Of a stretch of DNA of 64,000 bases, positions 14,199-61,559 are shown piece by piece. The notes under the pieces are model-generated. The model saw only the letters and a list, made by a program, of their open reading frames with translations. It was not told where the DNA came from and searched no databases. The position numbers and the translations under genes are program-made. The stretch's first letter is position 1; every line of letters begins with the position of its first letter. The stretch is from Rickettsia typhi (lineage in GTDB: Bacteria > Pseudomonadota > Alphaproteobacteria > WRAU01 > Hepatincolaceae): the NCBI GenBank assembly GCA_945888065.1, contig CAMCZU010000001.1, positions 62,001 through 126,000 on the forward strand, in the 5' to 3' direction.

Positions 14199-14594
14199 AT
14201 GACAACTAAAGTAATAACATTTGGAACTTTTGATTTATTCCACATAGGTCATCTTCGCATTTTACAAAGAGCAAAAGCATTAGGCGATGAATTAATTGTT
14301 GGGGTATGCACAGATGAATATAGCTTTGAGAGAAAAAATAAATACCCTATCAATAATCAAAATCAAAGATATGAAATATTAGATGCACTAAAATGCGTTA
14401 ATAGTGTATTTTTTGAGGAATTTGATAATAAAAAATTTTATATTCAAAAATATAAAGCAGATATTATGGCAATGGGAAGTGACTGGGAAAATCATTTTGA
14501 TTACTTACAAACTTATTGTAAAGTGCAATATTTGCAACGCACTTCCTCTATATCTACTACCCTTATTATAGAAAAAATTATTAATGAGATGTAA
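14199..14594 (+). CDS. TagD-like glycerol-3-phosphate/choline-phosphate cytidylyltransferase family protein
   Basis: TFGTFDLFHIGHLRILQRAKALGDELIVGV nucleotidyltransferase HIGH motif and C-terminal RTSSISTT. Confidence 0.9.
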   Translation: MTTKVITFGTFDLFHIGHLRILQRAKALGDELIVGVCTDEYSFERKNKYPINNQNQRYEILDALKCVNSVFFEEFDNKKFYIQKYKADIMAMGSDWENHFDYLQTYCKVQYLQRTSSISTTLIIEKIINEM

Positions 14595-14597
14595 AAA

Positions 14598-15422
14598 ATG
14601 ACAGAAGATTTAAAAATTCTTTTACATTATGAAAATTGCAATTATTCTCAAATTGGATATAAAAAATTATTGCAAGATTTATTATTAAAACAACTTAAAA
14701 TATTTGATAAAATTTGCAAAAAACATAATATTGAATATTTTTTCACACATGGAACTTTACTTGGAATTATTAGATACCAAAAAATGATACCTTGGGATAT
14801 TGATATTAATATAGGAATGCTTAGAGCAGAATACAATAAGTTTAAACAAGTTTTTAATATATACTCAAATATTATTAGCCTAAAATTTGATGAAAAACAT
14901 ATCTTAGAATATGGTGTAAGCTACTTGTATCATCAAGATATAGCAATTTATCAAAAAATTCAAATTATGCCTTTTGATATTATTTATAAAAAATTTTCAG
15001 TTGGAGAACAAACTGATTTTGCAAAAAATATTTATCAAATTACAAAACAAATCCTTAATAAGGAAATAGATTATAATTATAAAGTAAATGATTATGAATC
15101 TTTTAAAGATAGTATTGATATAAAAAATACAACTATTATACAAAATATTAATTATCCTTATTCAGCAAAGCCAGTTGTATATTTTTATGATGATATCTTC
15201 CCTCTTAAAAATTGTATTTTTCATAATCATAAATATAAAGCATTAATAAATAATTACAATAAATACATATATACAATGTATGGCATAAATACAGAATATA
15301 TAAATTATCAAGCATACAATTATAAAAATGATAACCTACAACTAACTATTGATCTATTAATAAAAGATAGATTAGATAAAAAAATAGAAGAATATTTATT
15401 AAATGATGATGAAATTATTTAA
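14598..15422 (+). CDS. LicD family protein (phosphocholine/phosphoglycerol transferase-like)
   Basis: FFTHGTLLGIIRYQKMIPWDIDINIGM resembles the LicD motif; follows the cytidylyltransferase by 3 bp. Confidence 0.82.
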   Translation: MTEDLKILLHYENCNYSQIGYKKLLQDLLLKQLKIFDKICKKHNIEYFFTHGTLLGIIRYQKMIPWDIDINIGMLRAEYNKFKQVFNIYSNIISLKFDEKHILEYGVSYLYHQDIAIYQKIQIMPFDIIYKKFSVGEQTDFAKNIYQITKQILNKEIDYNYKVNDYESFKDSIDIKNTTIIQNINYPYSAKPVVYFYDDIFPLKNCIFHNHKYKALINNYNKYIYTMYGINTEYINYQAYNYKNDNLQLTIDLLIKDRLDKKIEEYLLNDDEII

Positions 15423-15434
15423 CAATAAACAATT

Positions 15435-16139
15435 TTAATCTTTCTTTTTTTTAAGTCTAATTTTTTCTTTTACATCTAACATTGAAGATGCAATTAATGC
15501 CGTTGGGATTGAAAAAAGTGCAATACCTAAAAATAATAAAATTGTTGTTATAATTTTTCCTGCAACACTCTGAGGTATCATATCACCATATCCAACCGTT
15601 GTTAGTGTGATCACACACCACCAAAGGGATGCAAAAATTGAAGAAAAAGTTTCAGGTTGAAGAGGATTTTCAAAATAATATACAATAGCAGAAAAAATAT
15701 AAATTAAAATACAAGCTACTAAAAATACTCCAAATAATAATACTTTAATTTCTGCTAATGCTTCAAAAAAAACTTCAAAAAGACGATCATTTTTATAATT
15801 AAAATAATTTAAAATTCTCAACAACTTAAAAAGTCTAATTAGCCTAAAAATTTGTAATGGCTCTATAAAAATTACAATTACAGATAAAAAATCAATTATA
15901 CCCCAAAAGCTAAATATATATTTTTTTTTATATTTTGTTAAAAAAATTCTTGTAGCATATTCTATAGTAAAAATAATATTAAAAATCCAATTACCTAGTT
16001 TGTAATATTTTTCATTAATATAACTTAAAGATAGAGAATCAAAAGAATATAAAAGCACATATAAAATAATTATACTTAAGCTACTTAATTCTAAAATTTC
16101 TTTCCATAAATGCTTTTTGTTAAATAATTTCAAATTCAT
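15435..16139 (-). CDS. Voltage-gated K+ channel family protein (6TM, TVGYGD filter)
   Basis: TTVGYGDMIP selectivity filter; S4-like FRLIRLFKLLRIL; multiple TM segments. Confidence 0.92.
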   Translation of the reverse strand: MNLKLFNKKHLWKEILELSSLSIIILYVLLYSFDSLSLSYINEKYYKLGNWIFNIIFTIEYATRIFLTKYKKKYIFSFWGIIDFLSVIVIFIEPLQIFRLIRLFKLLRILNYFNYKNDRLFEVFFEALAEIKVLLFGVFLVACILIYIFSAIVYYFENPLQPETFSSIFASLWWCVITLTTVGYGDMIPQSVAGKIITTILLFLGIALFSIPTALIASSMLDVKEKIRLKKKKD

Positions 16140-17103
16140 TGCTGTCTAAAATTTCTAAACTTAAATATTTTTTATTATCATAACTCATTACTACAAAATT
16201 ATTATATACATCTTTTATATAATTAGTATAATCACTTTTTACAATTAGTTGCTGTATTAAAAATTTAATTATTAAAAAATATGGTAAATATGTTTTTTGA
16301 TTCCTATTTAAAAAAATCAGATCATAATTAGTATTAATAAATCTATTAATACTAGAATTAGATTCAACTTTTATAAAAGATTCTCTATCTAAAACTTTAT
16401 CATAATGAGAAACAATATCCCTAATTCTTTTAACATCTGTTAATATTGGTATAAACATTTTATAATTAGAAATACCAAAAAAATTAGCTACTTTATTTTT
16501 TATATCATCATTAAAACTGCATAATTTATAAACATCAATTAATGCACCAAAACTTAGTCCTTCTAAAGCTATCCAAGCTGGAGCAGGTTTAGCATTGCAC
16601 TTACACTTGCTGTATTTGGTTTTTTTGCATTTACAATTCTTTTTAAAATAATAATCAATATGAATATTATTTTGACTTGTAGCTTGAGATTGAATATTAT
16701 TAAATTTTTTATCAATATCTTCATTTGATTTTATATTTGATTTTTTTGCTATATATAAATTTCTTTTTGCATAAAAAGAAGGATCTTTTTTGGAGAAATG
16801 ATAAATTAGCTGAGTTTTAAATGCAATTTCTATAAATTGTAGTAATTGAGATAATAAGGCTTTATATTGTATATCTAAATAATATAAATTTACAATTTCA
16901 CTAAATTTTGCTTCATTTTTATAAATATCTTTACATATATTTTTATCTTTTAAAAAGGGAAATCTATAAGAATTAAACCTATGGTAAGATGTTATGCTTA
17001 AAAAATTTTCAGCATTTTTATTATCATCAATATTCAAACCTCTTTCTTGCATCAAACTTATTTGACTTTCAAAAGATTTCCATTGTTTGTTGTTTTTAGA
17101 CAT
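16120..17103 (-). CDS. Abi_2 (AbiD/F-like) family protein with HEPN-type RX4H motif
   Basis: Abi_2-like N-terminus (ISLMQERGLNIDDNKNAENFLSITSYHRFNSYRFPFL), WIALEGLSFGAL, RDIVSH; overlaps the channel gene by 20 bp. Confidence 0.83.
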   Translation of the reverse strand: MSKNNKQWKSFESQISLMQERGLNIDDNKNAENFLSITSYHRFNSYRFPFLKDKNICKDIYKNEAKFSEIVNLYYLDIQYKALLSQLLQFIEIAFKTQLIYHFSKKDPSFYAKRNLYIAKKSNIKSNEDIDKKFNNIQSQATSQNNIHIDYYFKKNCKCKKTKYSKCKCNAKPAPAWIALEGLSFGALIDVYKLCSFNDDIKNKVANFFGISNYKMFIPILTDVKRIRDIVSHYDKVLDRESFIKVESNSSINRFINTNYDLIFLNRNQKTYLPYFLIIKFLIQQLIVKSDYTNYIKDVYNNFVVMSYDNKKYLSLEILDSNEFEII

Positions 17104-17121
17104 TTTCTTTTTGGTTATAAA

Positions 17122-17169
17122 AAAAAGGATTATAAAATAAATAATAAAACTTACTTCATAATCCTTTTT
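17122..17169 (-). terminator. Hairpin terminator candidate downstream of prs
   Basis: Inverted repeat AAAAAGGATTAT (17122-17133) / ATAATCCTTTTT (17158-17169). Confidence 0.5.
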
Positions 17170-17261
17170 AAAAAATACATTTTACCCGATCCCGGGATTC
17201 ATAAAATATTATACCTTAATTTTTAAAAAAATACAATTAAAATATAAAAAAATATATATAA

Positions 17262-18200
17262 TTAACTTAAAAATAAATCAGACATAGATTTATTTTCTAC
17301 AGTTCTTTTAATACTTTGTGCTAAAAGCTGTGCTACAGATAAATACCTAATTTTTTCAATATGATTGGTTTTAGCAATAGAGTTTATTGAATCTGTGCAA
17401 ATAAATTCTACAATTGGAGAATTATTAATATTAACAATAGCTTTACTAGAAAATACTCCGTGGGTAACATAAGCATATACAGAAGTTGCCCCTGCTTTAT
17501 TTAAAGCAATAGAAGCATTACAAAATGTTCCTGCTGAATCTGCAATATCATCAATTAAAATACAATTTTTATCTTTTACTTCTCCAATAATATTCATTAC
17601 CTCTGATACACCTGGGACTGATCTTCTTTTATCTATAATTGCTAAATCGCAACCTAACCATTTAGCAACACTTCTTGCTCTCATTACTCCACCAATATCT
17701 GGAGAAACAATTACAACATCACTAAGGGAGCTAAATTTAGCTCTAATATCTTCTACAAATAAAATATTTCCATATAAATTATCCACAGGAACATCAAAAA
17801 AACCCTGAATTTGAGCTGCATGTAAATCTAGGGTTATTAACTTATCTACCCCAGCCTTAGTTATTAAATTAGCTACTAATTTTGCAGAAATTGGAGTGCG
17901 AGGAGCACTTTTTCTATCTTGCCTTGCATATCCAAAATAAGGAACTACTGCTGTAATACTTTTTGCAGAGGCTCTTTTTAATGCATCTATAATAATTAAT
18001 AATTCCATTAAGTTATCATTAACAGGGTATGATGTAGATTGTATTATATACACATCTTCCCCCCTCATGCTTTCTAATATTTCTACACTAATTTCACCAT
18101 CTGCAAAATTTGTAATATTAGATTTTACACAAGACACACCTAAAATTTGTGCGATTTTTTCTGCCAAGGGCTTATTAGCATTTCCAGAAATTAATTTCAT
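17262..18200 (-). CDS. prs: Ribose-phosphate pyrophosphokinase
   Basis: YFGYARQDRKSAPRTPISAKLVANL; VIVSPDIGGVMRARSVA; ILIDDIADSAGT. Confidence 0.97.
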   Translation of the reverse strand: MKLISGNANKPLAEKIAQILGVSCVKSNITNFADGEISVEILESMRGEDVYIIQSTSYPVNDNLMELLIIIDALKRASAKSITAVVPYFGYARQDRKSAPRTPISAKLVANLITKAGVDKLITLDLHAAQIQGFFDVPVDNLYGNILFVEDIRAKFSSLSDVVIVSPDIGGVMRARSVAKWLGCDLAIIDKRRSVPGVSEVMNIIGEVKDKNCILIDDIADSAGTFCNASIALNKAGATSVYAYVTHGVFSSKAIVNINNSPIVEFICTDSINSIAKTNHIEKIRYLSVAQLLAQSIKRTVENKSMSDLFLS

Positions 18201-29381: not shown

Positions 29382-32300
29382 ATGACTAAACAAAACTTAC
29401 AAGAACAATATCAAAAAGCTCTACAAAATGGGGTTATAAAAAATACTTTTTTAGATAATTCTTTATTTAATAAGTATTTTTTAGCACCCACCTTACAACA
29501 TAACTTACAAGAAGAACAATCTTTTTATGAGCCTTATAAAAACGATGATTTAAACTATGAAAATATAGGTAAAAAAAATCTTTTTGCAAAATTACCTAAA
29601 TCTTCACAAATACAGAGAAAAAATTTTGAAAACTTTACCAAAATTTTTAAACAAATATCTAATTTCTTTAATTCAAATTCAAGCAAACCAAATTTTTTTG
29701 AATCCCTTTCAGAGGCAGATATTGAACACAAAATTGTATCTCCTTTATTAAATGCACTGGGTTTTGAATATGTATCTCAATATAGCACAACAATTGCAGA
29801 TATAACTTACAGAGTAGATTTTTTAGCTTTTTCTAGTAATTATGCCTATGAAAAATATCAAACAAATCAACAAATAGATAAAAGCTGTGTAATTGTAGAA
29901 GTAAAAAAATGGGATACCCCCTTTGATAGAAAAATCTCTAATAATGACACAAATTATCCTCAAAGGCAATTGCTAAACTATTTATATACACTGGGCTTAA
30001 GTAGAGGAATTTTAACAAGTGGAAATAAATGGTGGTTATACGATGTATCACAACAATCTAAAAATGCTTTAATTTTAGGGGTAGATATTTTTAAAATGTT
30101 TACTCAAGATTCTGGAATTTCTGAAAATAATTTTTATAATCTATTTAATGCTAAAAATTTTAGTAGTGAAAACTTTTTTGAAGAGCTTCATCATAAAAAT
30201 TTAACTCTTTCTGAAAAACTAGAAGAAGATTTAAAAGAAGTAATTTATGGAGAAGTATCAATTTTAGAAGAAATTGGTAAAGCAATTTATAAATTAAATC
30301 AACAAGCACAACTGCAAGATATTTATTATAATGCTTTAATTTTTCTCTTTAGAATCATCTTTATGCTTTTTTATGAAAATAAATATGGATATTTTTTGTA
30401 TTTACATAGAAGCTACAAATTATATTCAATTTATGAACTTTTTAAAGATTTACAAGAAAATAAAGCATCTTTTAAAGATTTAATCAAAATTTGGACTTAT
30501 CTAAATGAAGGAGATGAAACTCACAATATACCCCTACTTAATGGTGGATTATTTGATAATAACACTTATCAACTGCTTAATGATGCAAATTTATTTTCTA
30601 ATGATGAACTGGAAAAGATTTTAACTAAACTAATTACTAATAAAGATTATAAAAACCTATCTACAACACAACTTGGCAATATTTATGAAGGTTTATTAAA
30701 TTATGAATTTAAAATTGCCTCTACACATACTTATTTAGTGCAATATAAAGAAAAAAGCAAAACTACAAGCTACACTTTTTTAGATTTTTATTTTTATGAA
30801 AAAATGCTTAAATATTCTCAAAGTAAATCATCAAATATAGAAAATTTTAAACTAATACAACAATATTTACCTAGGCAACTATATTTAACATCTTTAAGTG
30901 ATCAAAGAAAAACCTCTGCAAGTTATTATACTCCAATGGATTTATGCGATTATATGGTAGAGCAAAGTATTACTAACCAATTAAATAATAATGTAGCAAT
31001 TGATGAAATTAAAATTATAGATAATGCTTGTGGAAGTGGGCACTTTTTAGTATCTGCCTTAAATTGTTTTTCTAACATTATAGAAAATAATGAAAATTAT
31101 AAAGCTAGTTTGCAAAAAATTTTTGATACTGAAAAAGCTCAAATTTATAACAATATTAATGCAATATCACCAAGTGATGAAATTGCTAAAACACTCTATC
31201 CAAGTGATAGGCAAATTATTAAAAGAATTTTATTAAAAAAATCTATCTACGGAGTAGATTTAAACCCAATTGCCATAGAAATTACTAAAATTTCTTTATG
31301 GATAGAAACTTTTATATTTGGCACACCCCTATCTTTAATAGAGCATCATATTAAGGTTGGAAATTCTTTAATTTTTAGTTCTCTGCAAGATTTAGATTCT
31401 AAATTACCACAAGATGATTTATTTTTTGATAATAAATGGAAAGAAGAAATTAATAATTTAAAAACAGAATTTAAAAAGCTAGAGCAACTAAATGATATTA
31501 ATGCAAATGAAATTAAACAAAGTAAGCAAATTCACCAAAAAAATAATTTAATTATTGAAAAACTCAATAAATATTTAAATTTTATTAATTATGTAGATTT
31601 TTGTAATGCTAATAACTTAAAAATTGACACACTTGCAGAATATAATTTATTTTTAAGCAATTCAAATATTAAATTTAATAATTTTGTAAAAACTTATAAC
31701 CCATTTAATATAGATTTACAATTTATAGATTCTTCAAAATTTAATTGTGTTGTTGGTAATCCACCTTGGGATGTTACATCTTTTGGTGAAAAAGATTTTT
31801 ACAGCCAATATTATTCTAATTATAGAAACTTAAGCAATAATGAAAAAAATCAAACTAAAGAAATTTTACATAAAAGCTTTTTATTTTTAAAATGGAGCAA
31901 AGAAGAAAACCAAAATTATATAAAAAGCATAAATAATTACTATAAATATAAGTATCCTTATAATAAAGGTGCTGGAAAAAACAATTTATTTCAATTTTTT
32001 TTAGAAAGAAATTTAAGTTTATTAAAAAAAGGTGGAGATTTATATTATTTAACACCATCTATATGGATGTTTGCAGATAGTGGAGAAAATATTCGCAAAT
32101 ATATTTTTAATAATTTTAATTTAAAAACTCTTTACCAATTTCAAAATGAAAAATTAATTTTTAAATCTATAGCATCTAACTATAAATTTTGTATTTATAA
32201 TATCAATAATACAAAAGAAAGTAATTTTACTAAATGCTTTTTTTTACAAAACGATGTATCTAAACTTCAAGATGATACTATAAAAATTAATTTATCTCTG

Positions 32301-33149
32301 CAAGAAATTAAAGCTTATTCTCCACATAAATTAAGTATTATTGAATTAAGCACACAAATAGATAAAAATATAATTTTTAAAGCCTATAAAAAATTTAATA
32401 CTTTAGAAAATAAAAATTTTATAGAATTTACAAAAATTAATGAAGCACCTAAAACAATTACTACAGAAAAAGAAAATTTATCTTATATAAAAGTTTTTGA
32501 AGGTAAAACAATGGATGCATTCAATTCACAAGCAGAAAATATTAGATACTGGGTAGATCCAAAGAATTTAAAAAATAATCTTTATAAAAATTATAGATTA
32601 GCATACAGAGATATTGCTAGAAATACAGATAGCAGAACTTTAGTATCTTGTATTTTACCAAAAAATAATATCTCTACAGATACGCTTGTAATTTCTAAAA
32701 ATTATATTGACCTTAAAATACTTTTATTTACACAAGCTTTATTTAACAGCATAATATGTGATTATATTATAAGAAGATATGTAGATTTACATGTAAGCAT
32801 TACATACCTTAAACATATTCCTATGCCTCAACCTAACATAGACGAACTACAAGAAAACGAAATTTTTAAGCAATTAATTTATAATTCTGCACTACTTAGC
32901 TATATTTATGCACCACAAGATTTTATAGAATTTGTAGAAAAATTTAATTTACAAATTAATACTATTCCATTAGATGAAATAATAAAAGAAAGATTTATAG
33001 ATGAACTTAAAGTGCAAAATGATTGTTTAATTTTAAAGTTATACGAAATTACAAATAATGAACTTAAATATATATTAAGCACTTATAAAGCACTTAATAA
33101 TAAATCACCTCAATTTGTGCAGTTATTGTTAAATTCTTATAATGATTAA
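29382..33149 (+). CDS. Type IIG-like restriction-modification enzyme (fused nuclease + N6-adenine methylase)
   Basis: N-terminal nuclease-like region (YRVDFLAF...VIVEVKKWDTPF), methylase motif I DNACGSGHFLVSALN, motif IV GNPPWDV. Confidence 0.87.
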   Translation: MTKQNLQEQYQKALQNGVIKNTFLDNSLFNKYFLAPTLQHNLQEEQSFYEPYKNDDLNYENIGKKNLFAKLPKSSQIQRKNFENFTKIFKQISNFFNSNSSKPNFFESLSEADIEHKIVSPLLNALGFEYVSQYSTTIADITYRVDFLAFSSNYAYEKYQTNQQIDKSCVIVEVKKWDTPFDRKISNNDTNYPQRQLLNYLYTLGLSRGILTSGNKWWLYDVSQQSKNALILGVDIFKMFTQDSGISENNFYNLFNAKNFSSENFFEELHHKNLTLSEKLEEDLKEVIYGEVSILEEIGKAIYKLNQQAQLQDIYYNALIFLFRIIFMLFYENKYGYFLYLHRSYKLYSIYELFKDLQENKASFKDLIKIWTYLNEGDETHNIPLLNGGLFDNNTYQLLNDANLFSNDELEKILTKLITNKDYKNLSTTQLGNIYEGLLNYEFKIASTHTYLVQYKEKSKTTSYTFLDFYFYEKMLKYSQSKSSNIENFKLIQQYLPRQLYLTSLSDQRKTSASYYTPMDLCDYMVEQSITNQLNNNVAIDEIKIIDNACGSGHFLVSALNCFSNIIENNENYKASLQKIFDTEKAQIYNNINAISPSDEIAKTLYPSDRQIIKRILLKKSIYGVDLNPIAIEITKISLWIETFIFGTPLSLIEHHIKVGNSLIFSSLQDLDSKLPQDDLFFDNKWKEEINNLKTEFKKLEQLNDINANEIKQSKQIHQKNNLIIEKLNKYLNFINYVDFCNANNLKIDTLAEYNLFLSNSNIKFNNFVKTYNPFNIDLQFIDSSKFNCVVGNPPWDVTSFGEKDFYSQYYSNYRNLSNNEKNQTKEILHKSFLFLKWSKEENQNYIKSINNYYKYKYPYNKGAGKNNLFQFFLERNLSLLKKGGDLYYLTPSIWMFADSGENIRKYIFNNFNLKTLYQFQNEKLIFKSIASNYKFCIYNINNTKESNFTKCFFLQNDVSKLQDDTIKINLSLQEIKAYSPHKLSIIELSTQIDKNIIFKAYKKFNTLENKNFIEFTKINEAPKTITTEKENLSYIKVFEGKTMDAFNSQAENIRYWVDPKNLKNNLYKNYRLAYRDIARNTDSRTLVSCILPKNNISTDTLVISKNYIDLKILLFTQALFNSIICDYIIRRYVDLHVSITYLKHIPMPQPNIDELQENEIFKQLIYNSALLSYIYAPQDFIEFVEKFNLQINTIPLDEIIKERFIDELKVQNDCLILKLYEITNNELKYILSTYKALNNKSPQFVQLLLNSYND

Positions 33150-51560: not shown

Positions 51561-52733
51561 ATGTCTTGGTTATTTATAATAGTATTAATTGATTCAATTG
51601 GATTTGGAATCATTTTACCTTTACTACCCATTTTAGCAAAAACATTAAATATGAGTGCTTTTGATTTAGGAATTATTGTCTCATCTTTTGCATTTTTTCA
51701 ATTTTTATTTTCTCCAATATTAGGAGTTCTAAGTGATAATTTTGGAAGAAAACTTATAATTATTATTTGCTTACTTTCTATATCTTTGTCTTATCATTTT
51801 TTAGCAATATCTACAACATTTTACGAAATTTTATTTGCAAGAGGTCTTGCAGGAATATTCACAGGAAATATATCCATTGTAATGGCTAGTGCCTCTGATT
51901 TGTCTACAGAAAAAAATAGAGCACAATATATGGGATACATAGGGGCAGCTCTTGGTATTGGTTTTATTTTAGGGCCTATTATTGGAGGTCTATTAGCAGG
52001 TAGTAGCTTTGAGATAAAAGATTTAGGATTTGTGTTCAATATAGCTTCAATTTTTACATTTATTGCTGGTATATTAAGCATTTTCTTTTTAAAAGAAACA
52101 TTAACTAAGCATTCTCACATTAGACATAACTATTTTTTTTTACAAGAAATTAAATTAACTTTAAAAAATATCTTTATTGATAAACACATTGTATTTTTAA
52201 TATATTTATCAATCCTAACTTGGTTTTCTTTTTCTTCAATACAAGTATTTTTAACTAGTTGGAGTGTGGATAATTTTAATTTTGACCCCCTAGAATTAGG
52301 TATTATAAGCACTACTTTTGCTTTTATATTTGCATTAATACAAATTATATTAACTAAATTTTTAAATGGTAATAAAGCTTTACTAATAGGCTTTATAATT
52401 TCAATGATTTCAATGATTTCAATGCTAATTAACCCTAATTTGTTTCAACTAACAATTATAGTATTTGGATTAGCTTTAGGATTGGGAATATTGTTTCCTA
52501 ATTTAAACTCTAGCATTTCTTTATATGGAACAGACAAACAAAGAGGTTTTATTATTGGAATAAGCCAATCTGCTGGAACTTTAGGACAGGCATTAGGACC
52601 TATTTTTGTAGGATTTATATATACACATATTAACATTAATACAGCTTGGCTACTAATTGCAGGTGGGTTTTTACTTAGCATTATTATTACTTTGAAATAT
52701 ATGTTTTTACAAAAAAACAATCAAATATCTTGA
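51561..52733 (+). CDS. MFS transporter (TetA/DHA1-like), copy 1
   Basis: LIDSIGFGIILPLLPILAK; GVLSDNFGRKLIIIICL motif A; 12 TM pattern. Confidence 0.93.
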   Translation: MSWLFIIVLIDSIGFGIILPLLPILAKTLNMSAFDLGIIVSSFAFFQFLFSPILGVLSDNFGRKLIIIICLLSISLSYHFLAISTTFYEILFARGLAGIFTGNISIVMASASDLSTEKNRAQYMGYIGAALGIGFILGPIIGGLLAGSSFEIKDLGFVFNIASIFTFIAGILSIFFLKETLTKHSHIRHNYFFLQEIKLTLKNIFIDKHIVFLIYLSILTWFSFSSIQVFLTSWSVDNFNFDPLELGIISTTFAFIFALIQIILTKFLNGNKALLIGFIISMISMISMLINPNLFQLTIIVFGLALGLGILFPNLNSSISLYGTDKQRGFIIGISQSAGTLGQALGPIFVGFIYTHININTAWLLIAGGFLLSIIITLKYMFLQKNNQIS

Positions 52734-52797
52734 CAAATCAACTTTAATATCTATAATTAATTAGATAAAAATATAAAAATAATCAAGGGGATTTATT

Positions 52798-53034
52798 GTG
52801 AAAAAAGGCATACATCCAGAATATCACAAAATTATTATACAATTTACCGATGGAACTCAAGTTGAAACTAAATCTACTTGGGGAAAAGAAGGTGAAGTAA
52901 TGAAACTAGATATAGATTGCAAAACTCATCCAGCTTGGACAGGATCTCAAAGGCTAGTAGACAATGCAGGAAGATTATCTAAATTTAATGCTAAATTTAA
53001 TGGTCTTAATATAACAAAACAGCGTGATGCTTAA
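52798..53034 (+). CDS. rpmE: 50S ribosomal protein bL31
   Basis: MKKGIHPEYHKIIIQFTDGTQVETKSTWG; HPAWTGSQRLVDNAGRLSKFNAKF; GTG start. Confidence 0.95.
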   Translation: MKKGIHPEYHKIIIQFTDGTQVETKSTWGKEGEVMKLDIDCKTHPAWTGSQRLVDNAGRLSKFNAKFNGLNITKQRDA

Positions 53035-53045
53035 GAGATTTTATA

Positions 53046-54209
53046 ATGAAAAAAATTAATCCAATTTTTATTTTAGCTTTAATGACAGCTGTTGATATGA
53101 TAGGTTTTGGAATTATATTTCCACTTCTTCCTATTATGCAAGTTAAATTTGGTATGGATTCTAGACAATTAGGATATTTAGCATCTGTTTTTGCAGTATC
53201 TGGGTTAGTTGGAACAATATTATTTGGATATTTAAGTGATAAAATAGGTAGAAAAATTTTACTTTATGTTCCATTTTTTTTATTATCTATAACTTATTTA
53301 ATGACAGCCTATGCAACAACATACATAGATTTATTGATTCTAAGAGCTTTAGGTGGTTTTTTATCAGGCAATTTGTCTGTTGCATTTGCAGCAGCTTCTG
53401 ATATTTCAAAACCTGAAGATAAGTTTAAAAATATGGGAATTTTGGGAGCATCTTTTGGGTTAGGATTTATGTTTGGTCCAGCGATTGGAGGTTTTTTAGC
53501 AGGTAATTCTAACAATTTAAATCTTGTAAATTTACAAATACCATTTGTTTTTGCATTTTGCATTACATTGGTTTCTGGATTAATTGCATTATTATTTTTT
53601 AAAGAAAGTTTATCAAAAAAAGATAGACTAGAAGATAAAACAAGCAATGTTATAAGTTCTTTAATTGAAGTATTAAAAAATAAAAAAATCTTATTTTTTA
53701 CTTATTTAAGTATTTTATTATCTTTGATTTTATCTGGTGTTGAAGTATATTTAGGTCCTTGGCTTAAAGATTTGTTTAATTTTACATCTCAAGATATTGG
53801 CATATATTGGGGGATTTTTGCATTGTGTATTACTATATCTCAGCTAACATTAACACGATTTTTAAATGCAAAAACTGCTATTATTATTGGATTTTTTGTA
53901 TTTAGTGCTTCCCAATTTATGTTGCTAATTACAAATAATCTATATCTATTAGGCTTAAATACATTGCTAATGACTTTTGCTATGGGAATTATTTTCCCTA
54001 GTATTAATGTTGGTATTTCTTCAGAAGGTGCTAAAAATCAGCAAGGTTTGATTTTTGGAATTAATCAATCTGTAGGCAACATAGGTAGAATTTTAGGTCC
54101 ATATATTTTAGGAATACTATACAGCTATCACCCTGATTATGCTTGGATTTTTATTGGAATTATTTCAATAATAACAGCTTTATTTACTTTAAAATTTTTG
54201 CAACATTAA
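53046..54209 (+). CDS. MFS transporter (TetA/DHA1-like), copy 2
   Basis: VDMIGFGIIFPLLPIMQ; GYLSDKIGRKILLYVP motif A; similar to neighbours. Confidence 0.93.
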   Translation: MKKINPIFILALMTAVDMIGFGIIFPLLPIMQVKFGMDSRQLGYLASVFAVSGLVGTILFGYLSDKIGRKILLYVPFFLLSITYLMTAYATTYIDLLILRALGGFLSGNLSVAFAAASDISKPEDKFKNMGILGASFGLGFMFGPAIGGFLAGNSNNLNLVNLQIPFVFAFCITLVSGLIALLFFKESLSKKDRLEDKTSNVISSLIEVLKNKKILFFTYLSILLSLILSGVEVYLGPWLKDLFNFTSQDIGIYWGIFALCITISQLTLTRFLNAKTAIIIGFFVFSASQFMLLITNNLYLLGLNTLLMTFAMGIIFPSINVGISSEGAKNQQGLIFGINQSVGNIGRILGPYILGILYSYHPDYAWIFIGIISIITALFTLKFLQH

Positions 54210-54229
54210 TACATAAAGCTATATAGCAA

Positions 54230-55384
54230 ATGCCAATTTTATTTTTAATTACATTTATTTCTATGATGGGGTTTGGAGCAATATTTCCACTATTCCCATT
54301 ATTTAAGGTAAAATTTTCTCTAAATGACATTGAACTTGGTTATATTATATCTATATCTGCATTCTTTTCATTAATTGGAAGTTTATTTTTAGGATGGCTT
54401 AGTGATAAAATTGGAAGAAAATTACCTTTAGCTTTACCTATGTTTGGATTAGCTATATCTTATTATTTTACTGCCACAGCGGATAATATCACATCGTTTT
54501 TTATTTTAAGGATTTTAAGCGGTTTTTTTATAGGTAATTTTGCAGTAGCTTTTGCTTCAGCTTCAGATATGTCTACTCCTCAAACTCGTATTAAGTATAT
54601 GGGACTCATTGGTGGATCTTTTGGGTTAGGCTTTGTATTTGGACCTGCTATTGGTGGATATTTTGCAGGTGGAAGTAATAATATATCTAGCATTGATTTT
54701 GCAACTCCATTTAATATTTCTGCTTTTTCGTGTTTATTTGTAGGTTTTTTATGTTTATTCTTTTTTAAAGAAACACTTTTACCAAATGAAAGAAAAATTA
54801 AAATTGATTCTGATAATATATTTAAACAATTAAAAAAATTATTTATAAATAATGAGTTTTTATTTTTTACTATTATTGCTTTGATTTTCAATACTTTATC
54901 TTCTGGTATTCAAGTTTTTCTAGGTATTTACTTAAATATTAGCTTAGATTACACACCAAGAGATATTGGATTTTATTGGGGAATATATGGAATTTTAATG
55001 TCTTTAACACAAATTTTCTTCACAAAATATTTTAATACTAAAAAAGCTTTAATATATGGATTTTTATCTTATGGTATATCTGTTGGATTACTATCTTTTG
55101 CTACAAATACATATTGGTTAATTTTACCTACGCTTGGTATGGTATTATCTTTTGCAATTATTGGACCTAATATTAATACCAATTTATCTTTGCAAGGAGA
55201 AAAAAATCAACAAGGAATTATTTTTGGAATAAATCAATCTTTTGGTAGCATTGGTAGAATATTAGGACCTAACTTACTAGCTTTTATTTATTACTACAAC
55301 CACAATATCATTTGGTTTTGTGTTAGTATTGTTTGTTTGATTACATCTATAGCTATATATTTACACATCAATAAAAAAAAATGA
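54230..55384 (+). CDS. MFS transporter (TetA/DHA1-like), copy 3
   Basis: ISMMGFGAIFPLFPLFK; GWLSDKIGRKLPLALPM motif A; similar to neighbours. Confidence 0.93.
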   Translation: MPILFLITFISMMGFGAIFPLFPLFKVKFSLNDIELGYIISISAFFSLIGSLFLGWLSDKIGRKLPLALPMFGLAISYYFTATADNITSFFILRILSGFFIGNFAVAFASASDMSTPQTRIKYMGLIGGSFGLGFVFGPAIGGYFAGGSNNISSIDFATPFNISAFSCLFVGFLCLFFFKETLLPNERKIKIDSDNIFKQLKKLFINNEFLFFTIIALIFNTLSSGIQVFLGIYLNISLDYTPRDIGFYWGIYGILMSLTQIFFTKYFNTKKALIYGFLSYGISVGLLSFATNTYWLILPTLGMVLSFAIIGPNINTNLSLQGEKNQQGIIFGINQSFGSIGRILGPNLLAFIYYYNHNIIWFCVSIVCLITSIAIYLHINKKK

Positions 55385-60389: not shown

Positions 60390-61559
60390 TTAATTTTTAA
60401 TATTTTTAATAAACATTTTATTTGCAAGAACAATAATAAACATTAAAAATATCATTGCTGTAATTAAAAATACAATATAAGAATTATTTTCATCAAAAGC
60501 AAATATTTTTAATAAATATTTAAAAAACAAAGGTGAAACAAATTGACCCAAATAAAGACCGCTAAAAAAAATAACCAGTGCGCCAACTCTATTAACCTTA
60601 GAAGTTAATTCAGAAATCCTAGAAACCAAACCATTACCTAAACTTCCAAAACCTAACCCTAACAAAATTGAAGAAACATAGATAATATATAAATAATTAT
60701 TTAAAAAAGATAAAAATAAAAATGCTATACAAATAAAAGTAAATTGGCACAAATATAAAACATCATTAGAAATTTTTTTAATAGGAATCATAGCAAAATT
60801 AGACAAAACAGCAAACAACATATACAAACTTTGAGCATAAGCTGACTGCAAGTTCCCACCTAATTTATTTAACACAATTAAAAAAGAAATATTAGAAAAA
60901 TAAATAAAAACCAAAGTCATACATATAAAATAAAAAACACAAATCAACCATACCTTAGGCTTTAAAACAAATGAAAACAACATTGGATAAGTATGAACAG
61001 AATTTAATAAAGGATGAGGAACATACTTCCATAAAAACCATAAGGGTATAAAAGCAACAAAATGTACTAAAAATGCTAATCTCCAATGCAATTGTGATAA
61101 TAATCCAGCTAACAGCAAAATTACAACACCACCAACAAATGTTAATACCCCTGCATAAGATATCATTTTAAATCTTTTATTAGGAACAAAATAATCTGCA
61201 AATAAAGAATTAGAATATGGAACTACAAAACCTGCACCAACACCTAACATAACTCTAAAAAACATTAACCAGAAAATATTAAAAGATAAAATACAACCAA
61301 GTCCGCTAATAATATATAACAACAACCCAAAAATAACTAAATTTCTTTTCTTAAAATAAAAAGTTAAAATACTGCTTAAAAACAAGAAAGGAATAACAGC
61401 TAAAGATGGGAGTGTTAAAAACAATTTTGATAAAAAAGCACCATCACTGCCAACAAACTTTGCAACATCTGGCAAAATTGGTGATAAACCTGATCCAACT
61501 AAAATAGGAGTAAGAAAGATAGATAAAATTCCAGCTTTTAATTTAAAATTTTTAATCAT
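60390..61559 (-). CDS. MFS transporter, distinct from the tandem trio
   Basis: 12-TM pattern; GSGLSPILPDVAKFVGSDGAFLSKLFLTLPSLAVIPF. Confidence 0.88.
   Translation of the reverse strand: MIKNFKLKAGILSIFLTPILVGSGLSPILPDVAKFVGSDGAFLSKLFLTLPSLAVIPFLFLSSILTFYFKKRNLVIFGLLLYIISGLGCILSFNIFWLMFFRVMLGVGAGFVVPYSNSLFADYFVPNKRFKMISYAGVLTFVGGVVILLLAGLLSQLHWRLAFLVHFVAFIPLWFLWKYVPHPLLNSVHTYPMLFSFVLKPKVWLICVFYFICMTLVFIYFSNISFLIVLNKLGGNLQSAYAQSLYMLFAVLSNFAMIPIKKISNDVLYLCQFTFICIAFLFLSFLNNYLYIIYVSSILLGLGFGSLGNGLVSRISELTSKVNRVGALVIFFSGLYLGQFVSPLFFKYLLKIFAFDENNSYIVFLITAMIFLMFIIVLANKMFIKNIKN

What the first reader, a model, noticed from the sequence alone, without database searches (positions are those of the whole stretch)
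15435..17103. Overlapping HEPN/Abi_2 + voltage-gated K+ channel gene pair: candidate undescribed two-gene defence module
An Abi_2-family gene carrying the HEPN-type RX4H motif (RDIVSH) overlaps the start of a 6TM K+ channel gene (S4-like arginines, TVGYGD filter) by 20 bp on the same strand, implying translational coupling. Abi_2/AbiD/F proteins are linked to phage abortive infection and membrane-channel effectors are common in abortive systems. A HEPN sensor or RNase paired with an intact K+ channel would be an unusual architecture. I cannot verify novelty without a database search.
Basis: partly seen in the sequence, partly recalled or inferred. Interest (0 to 1): 0.7.

Follow-up and report, generated by a model that had tools for sequence, protein, structure and literature searches.

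The report
RNA-controlled AbiF toxin beside ion channel
The pair is a member of a known family of RNA-cutting toxins (AbiF, relatives of the ancestor of Cas13) that most likely carries an unrecognised, divergent RNA antitoxin just upstream; the potassium channel gene behind it was found in no other genome beside such a toxin and is probably a passenger.

Summary
In detail: on the minus strand an intact Abi_2 gene (16120-17103, HEPN motif RDIVSH) overlaps by 20 bp an intact Kv-type potassium channel gene (15435-16139). The proposed two-gene defence module is not supported. The channel is missing from the three other genomes held of the same order (GTDB WRAU01, Hepatincolaceae). No channel lies near 57 other Abi_2 loci, and no Abi_2 gene near 23 channel relatives. 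What recurs is upstream and was missed. All four genomes of the order have an abi_2 gene, each at a different place, and each is preceded by the same layout: a sigma-70-like promoter (17-nt spacer), a 4-bp hairpin with compensatory changes 9-11 nt after the -10 box, a terminator-like hairpin, then the start codon. This is the layout of AbiF systems, type III-like RNA toxin-antitoxins from which Cas13 evolved; the predicted fold matches only the AbiF-RNA structure 8VZ6. The RNA does not match Rfam's abiF family RF03085 or a new model from 28 abiF RNAs. Best reading: an AbiF-type HEPN RNase toxin held by a divergent short RNA antitoxin, with the channel a recent, non-conserved downstream gene. 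Toxicity, RNA expression and phage defence are untested.

The parts
17231..17236 (-). -35-like hexamer TTGTAT, 17 nt before the -10
   Evidence: same 17-nt spacing in all four genomes of the order
17208..17213 (-). -10-like hexamer TATAAT
17115..17201 (-). predicted small structured RNA, about 85 nt (ends inferred from promoter and terminator)
   Evidence: folds 4.4 sd below dinucleotide shuffles (z -4.35); the same two-hairpin fold in L002, L003, L004
17185..17196 (-). 5' hairpin CCCG-GGAT-CGGG; homologous stems CCCG/CGGG, CCAG/CTGG, CCTT/AAGG in relatives
   Evidence: only the four abi_2-linked copies among 12 pattern matches in the four genomes form the stem
17122..17169 (-). 21-bp hairpin followed by a U run: terminator between the RNA and abi_2
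   Evidence: equivalents in L002, L003, L004. The terminator scan (15300-17300) did not list it, as that scan needs at least 3 G-C pairs in at most 20 counted pairs
16120..17103 (-). abi_2 / AbiF-like HEPN protein, 327 aa
   Evidence: PF07751, AbiD, closest solved structure 8VZ6 PbAbiF-ncRNA by profile E=5.9e-43 and by fold prob 1.00, TMt 0.71
16405..16422 (-). HEPN RX4H motif, R228-DIVS-H233
   Evidence: alignments A1, A6
16597..16635 (-). Cys-rich insertion (C157, C159, C167, C169), family-specific, possible metal site
   Evidence: present in the order's proteins, absent from the Bacteroidota and other AbiF proteins aligned
15435..16139 (-). six-TM voltage-gated K+ channel (Kv/KvAP type), 234 aa; overlaps abi_2 by 20 bp; probable passenger
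   Evidence: absent from sister genomes
15582..15599 (-). selectivity filter TVGYGD of the channel
   Evidence: sequence
14199..15422 (+). cytidylyltransferase and LicD-like genes sharing the same prs-rplY insertion, convergent with the channel; not part of the toxin module
   Evidence: prs and rplY lie 160 bp apart in G001

Best explanation
This is an AbiF-type, type III-like toxin-antitoxin unit. A strong constitutive promoter makes a short two-hairpin RNA that mostly stops at its own terminator; occasional read-through makes the mRNA of the HEPN RNase AbiF (and of the downstream channel). The RNA binds the AbiF dimer and keeps its R-X4-H active site off; disturbance of RNA supply, for example by phage takeover or loss of the locus, frees the toxin, which cuts cellular RNA and stops growth. 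The channel is a separate Kv-type potassium channel that happens to be co-transcribed after insertion of this cassette between prs and rplY. Shown here: the genes, motifs, fold match, conserved RNA layout with compensatory stem changes, and lack of channel association. Inferred: transcription, RNA-protein binding, toxicity, trigger, and that the channel is a bystander.
For: Protein: PF07751 and AbiD models; RX4H kept in all four genomes of the order; the only PDB fold match with E below 0.001 is 8VZ6, PbAbiF bound to its ncRNA (E=1.1e-8, prob 1.00), which is also the top profile hit (5.9e-43). RNA: the four orthologous upstream regions share promoter spacing of 17 nt, a CC-NN-loop-NN-GG hairpin 9-11 nt after the -10, and a terminator hairpin. 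Stems differ but stay paired (CCCG/CGGG, CCAG/CTGG, CCTT/AAGG). Folding z-scores are -4.4, -4.9, -5.5, -2.7. Chance of a CC-stem in all four shuffled leaders is about 2e-11 if they were independent. The same promoter-RNA-terminator-abiF layout is shown by experiment to be an RNA antitoxin in C. difficile (PMC12373285). Channel: absent in G001-G003, 0 of 57 Abi_2 loci, 0 of 23 channel loci near Abi_2.
Against: The RNA matches neither RF03085, even at E<=10, nor a new abiF model R1 that finds held-out abiF loci. It may thus be only a leader or attenuator, not an antitoxin. The four leaders are related, so the chance figure is only a guide. No expression data exist. The 20-bp overlap could mean the channel does belong.
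Confidence: 0.7

Rival explanations
1. One reading: Abi_2 and the channel form one defence system in which the HEPN protein senses or is triggered by infection and the channel depolarises the cell, a parallel to Cas13b with its membrane pore Csx28.
For: 20-bp overlap and intact frames; the channel sits under the same RNA-controlled promoter; membrane effectors that depolarise cells are known in defence (Cam1, PMC10808066, listed); tight downstream genes of AbiF loci are often defence genes.
Against: No recurrence in 57 Abi_2 loci or in three sister genomes; no defence-model match for the channel; channel relatives in plasmid records sit in ordinary neighbourhoods such as opp-ion transporter-cls; no defence genes between prs and rplY besides abi_2.
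Confidence: 0.07
2. The upstream element is a transcription attenuator or riboswitch-like leader that limits AbiF expression, without acting on the protein in trans.
For: The conserved parts are a promoter, a small hairpin and a terminator; no abiF motif is recognised.
Against: The 5' hairpin is conserved by pairing and is separate from the terminator; well-studied AbiF relatives use this position for a trans-acting antitoxin RNA (PMC12373285).
Confidence: 0.17
3. The abi_2 gene is a domesticated or decaying relic with a host regulatory role and no toxin-antitoxin function.
For: Small, reduced genome (867 kb); present in all four genomes of the order.
Against: Full-length frame, intact catalytic motif and conserved RNA in four genera at four different places, which looks like a mobile, maintained unit.
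Confidence: 0.06

Closest known systems
AbiF / AbiFr (PbAbiF, PDB 8VZ6; Zilberzwige-Tal 2025, cited in PMC12373285 and PMC12737573)
   Same: HEPN fold (prob 1.00, TMt 0.71), RX4H motif, structured RNA between promoter and gene
   Different: RNA has no recognisable abiF motif; protein has a Cys-rich insertion; downstream channel
AbiF-Cd / RCd22 of Clostridioides difficile phages (PMC12373285)
   Same: promoter, small RNA, terminator, abiF in one transcription unit; RNA antitoxin proven there
   Different: RCd22 has two RF03085 motifs; phage-borne in a lysis module; about 25% identity in the protein
Bacterial 'ion transporter' / KvAP-type voltage-gated K+ channels
   Same: Ion_trans domain, S4 charges, TVGYGD filter
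   Different: at most 38% identity to channels of the 385 class genomes searched; placed behind abi_2
Cas13b with Csx28 (from my own knowledge; named in papers listed)
   Same: idea of a HEPN RNase paired with a membrane pore
   Different: Csx28 is not known to be a Kv channel; the pairing here does not recur

Membership tests
AbiF/AbiD (Abi_2, PF07751) | Abi_2 domain above the curated cut-off | tested here: met
   104.8 bits, cut-off 25.6
AbiF/AbiD (Abi_2, PF07751) | HEPN R-phi-xxx-H catalytic motif | tested here: met
   R228-DIVS-H233; R/H kept in all relatives where the region is covered
AbiF/AbiD (Abi_2, PF07751) | AbiF fold | tested here: met
   AlphaFold2 model pLDDT 77.4; best PDB match 8VZ6
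AbiF type III-like RNA toxin-antitoxin | structured RNA between promoter and terminator directly upstream of the gene | tested here: met
AbiF type III-like RNA toxin-antitoxin | abiF RNA motif RF03085 | tested here: not met
   no hit at E<=10 in 17090-17270, nor with custom model R1
AbiF type III-like RNA toxin-antitoxin | toxicity neutralised by the RNA in trans | not testable with these tools
   needs expression experiments
Two-gene Abi_2 plus channel defence system | recurrent adjacency in other genomes | tested here: not met
   0 of 57 Abi_2 loci, 0 of 23 channel loci, absent in sister genomes
Two-gene Abi_2 plus channel defence system | protection against phage | not testable with these tools
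   needs phage challenge
Voltage-gated K+ channel (Kv/KvAP type) | S4 charges and TVGYGD filter in an Ion_trans domain | tested here: met

The most novel reading that the evidence does not exclude
The RNA-held AbiF toxin and the voltage-gated K+ channel act together: release of AbiF from its RNA antitoxin during phage infection is coupled to depolarisation through the channel, an independent, pre-CRISPR counterpart of Cas13b with Csx28, here seen in a single lineage.
Probability: 0.06. Interest if true: 0.8.

Novelty: new variant of a known kind. Interest (0 to 1): 0.4.

Why it matters
AbiF with its RNA is the proposed ancestor of Cas13. A whole order of gut symbionts in which all four sequenced genera held here keep AbiF but use a much shorter RNA with no recognisable abiF motif would show how far the RNA half can change while the toxin stays controlled. 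The protein insertion that goes with it gives a testable case of protein-RNA co-evolution. The channel claim, if followed as written, would have led to the wrong experiment.

Tried and rejected
Two-gene module: tested by sister genomes, 57 Abi_2 loci and 23 channel loci, rejected as unsupported. RF03085 membership of the RNA: tested three ways, not met. Matches of the leader to snoR31 or psbA 3'UTR rejected as AT-rich chance hits far below gathering scores. Search for relatives of both proteins in viral contigs: none confirmed.

Full report
OBSERVATION. The Abi_2 protein matches PF07751 (E=8.9e-30), PADLOC AbiD (2.9e-31) and a PHROG of abortive-infection proteins. The channel matches Ion_trans (1.3e-27) and aligns with KvAP and Kv4/Kv1 chains. 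It has S4 charges R99, R102, K105, R108 and the filter TVGYGD. Both frames are intact.

SETTING. The window lies in an 867-kb, 85.9% complete assembly of 26 contigs. Its order holds only four genomes here, one per genus. PMC11724238 identifies the WRAU01 MAG, from the termite Labiotermes labralis, as Hepatincolaceae and equates that family with GTDB order and family WRAU01. The organism is therefore most likely an undescribed genus of Hepatincolaceae, extracellular gut bacteria of arthropods and other ecdysozoans. That placement is inference from one named relative. The window's abi_2 sits in an insertion of about 3 kb between prs and rplY, with LicD-like and cytidylyltransferase genes on the other strand. 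In G001 prs and rplY are 160 bp apart; in G002 dihydroxyacetone-kinase-like genes (my reading of the sequences, not searched) lie between them.

THE CHANNEL DOES NOT TRAVEL WITH ABI_2. All four genomes of the order have abi_2 (41-44% identity to the window's), each at a different place: prs-rplY here, beside yraN/gshB-like genes in G001, between mutM-like and thiD-like genes in G002, and between recN-like and rpoZ-like genes in G003, where the gene is split over two contig ends (neighbour names are my reading of the translations). None of the other three has a channel match. I drew 57 Abi_2 loci from a genome scan, 398 phylum genomes, plasmids and phages. A channel profile found nothing near any of them, while it scored 150-370 bits on the window and nine known channel loci, the window being one of its three training sequences. 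Some loci are cut by contig ends, so the 95% upper limit on adjacency is roughly 5%. In reverse, none of 23 channel loci had an Abi_2 gene nearby. Of five plasmid channel neighbourhoods read, two were the ordinary opp-ion transporter-cls arrangement and none held an Abi gene. Nineteen of the 57 Abi_2 loci have a same-strand ORF starting within 60 bp of the Abi_2 stop. Of the nine tested, two were HsdS-like, three HsdR-like, two Fic, one a ResIII helicase, and one had no hit. A tight downstream gene is therefore usual and changeable, which weakens the argument from overlap, though it leaves open that such partners are often defence genes.

WHAT DOES RECUR: AN RNA ELEMENT UPSTREAM. Reading the 160 bp before each abi_2 start in the four genomes shows one layout: a -35-like hexamer, 17 nt, TATAAT or TATACT, then 9-11 nt, then a hairpin with a 4-bp stem and 4-5 nt loop, then a terminator-like hairpin with a U run, then the start codon. 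The stems are CCCG/CGGG (window and G003), CCAG/CTGG (G001) and CCTT/AAGG (G002): the third and fourth pairs change on both sides and stay paired. Each leader folds into the same two hairpins, with z-scores -4.35, -4.93, -5.54 and -2.67 against dinucleotide shuffles. In shuffled leaders a CC-starting stem appears in 0.04-0.6% of cases. The product, 2e-11, assumes independence that related sequences do not have. A loose pattern for the element occurs 12 times in the four genomes; the four copies upstream of abi_2 form the stem, and by inspection the other eight do not. A second Abi_2 paralogue in G001 (L006) has no such element.

WHAT IT WORKS LIKE. In Clostridioides difficile the same order of parts, promoter, small RNA, terminator, abiF, is a proven toxin with an RNA antitoxin: the RNA represses expression by termination and neutralises the protein in trans, and toxicity is lost when R202 and H207 are changed (PMC12373285). 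A review describes PbAbiF bound to its RNA (8VZ6) as the ancestor type of Cas13 (PMC12737573). The window protein's predicted fold (pLDDT 77.4) has one PDB match with E below 0.001, 8VZ6 chain A, E=1.1e-8, probability 1.00, TM 0.71 by target length. The same chain is the best profile match (5.9e-43). I therefore take the unit to be an AbiF-type RNA toxin-antitoxin.

WHERE IT DIFFERS. Many of the other Abi_2 genes I read have the known abiF RNA just upstream; RF03085 scores 37.6 bits in phage phiC2 and 31.5 in a Bacteroidota locus. The window's RNA does not score with RF03085 even at E<=10. A model I built from 28 abiF RNAs finds held-out loci (L046, L051, L053, L054, L078, L080) but none of the four Hepatincolaceae leaders. 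That model is weak in structure (4 pairs). The proteins of this order also carry a Cys-rich insertion (C157, C159, C167, C169 here) absent from the other AbiF proteins aligned. The two changes may go together; that is inference.

LIMITS. Four RNA sequences is few, the stem is short, and no expression or binding data exist. RNA ends are inferred. The channel's role cannot be settled by sequence; no genus-mate of the window was available. PMC12373285 reports no abiF in Rickettsiales; this order is distinct from them, so there is no conflict.

Noticed in passing
L006 (G001), 1237-2172: A second, more distant Abi_2 paralogue in a Hepatincolaceae genome, without the promoter-hairpin-terminator element upstream.
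   Followed up: partly
window 16597-16635: Cys-rich insertion (four Cys in 13 residues) in the AbiF protein, specific to this order, possibly a metal site near the HEPN entrance.
   Followed up: partly
L005 2300-2500 / L084 (G041): Another alphaproteobacterial Abi_2 gene has a different leader (CCCCTCC...GGAGGGG enclosing AGCTCAATCTTAGAGATTGATG) that neither RF03085 nor model R1 recognises.
   Followed up: no
L046, L058, L066, L052, L056, L045, L074: Abi_2 genes closely followed, mostly overlapped, by type I restriction subunits (HsdS, HsdR) or Fic genes in several Pseudomonadota.
   Followed up: partly
window 29382-33149: 1255-aa Eco57I/MmeI-type restriction-methylase protein on the plus strand next to peptidase U32 and SCP2 genes.
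   Followed up: no
window 51561-55384: Three MFS transporter genes in tandem, similar in length, perhaps a recent expansion; a fourth MFS gene at 60390-61559.
   Followed up: no
L033 64-139: Group II intron 3' domain about 160 bp upstream of an Abi_2 gene in a Saprospiraceae MAG.
   Followed up: no
prs-rplY interval in G000, G001, G002: The same interval is empty in G001, holds dihydroxyacetone-kinase-like genes in G002 and the abi_2/channel/LicD cassette here: a variable site.
   Followed up: partly
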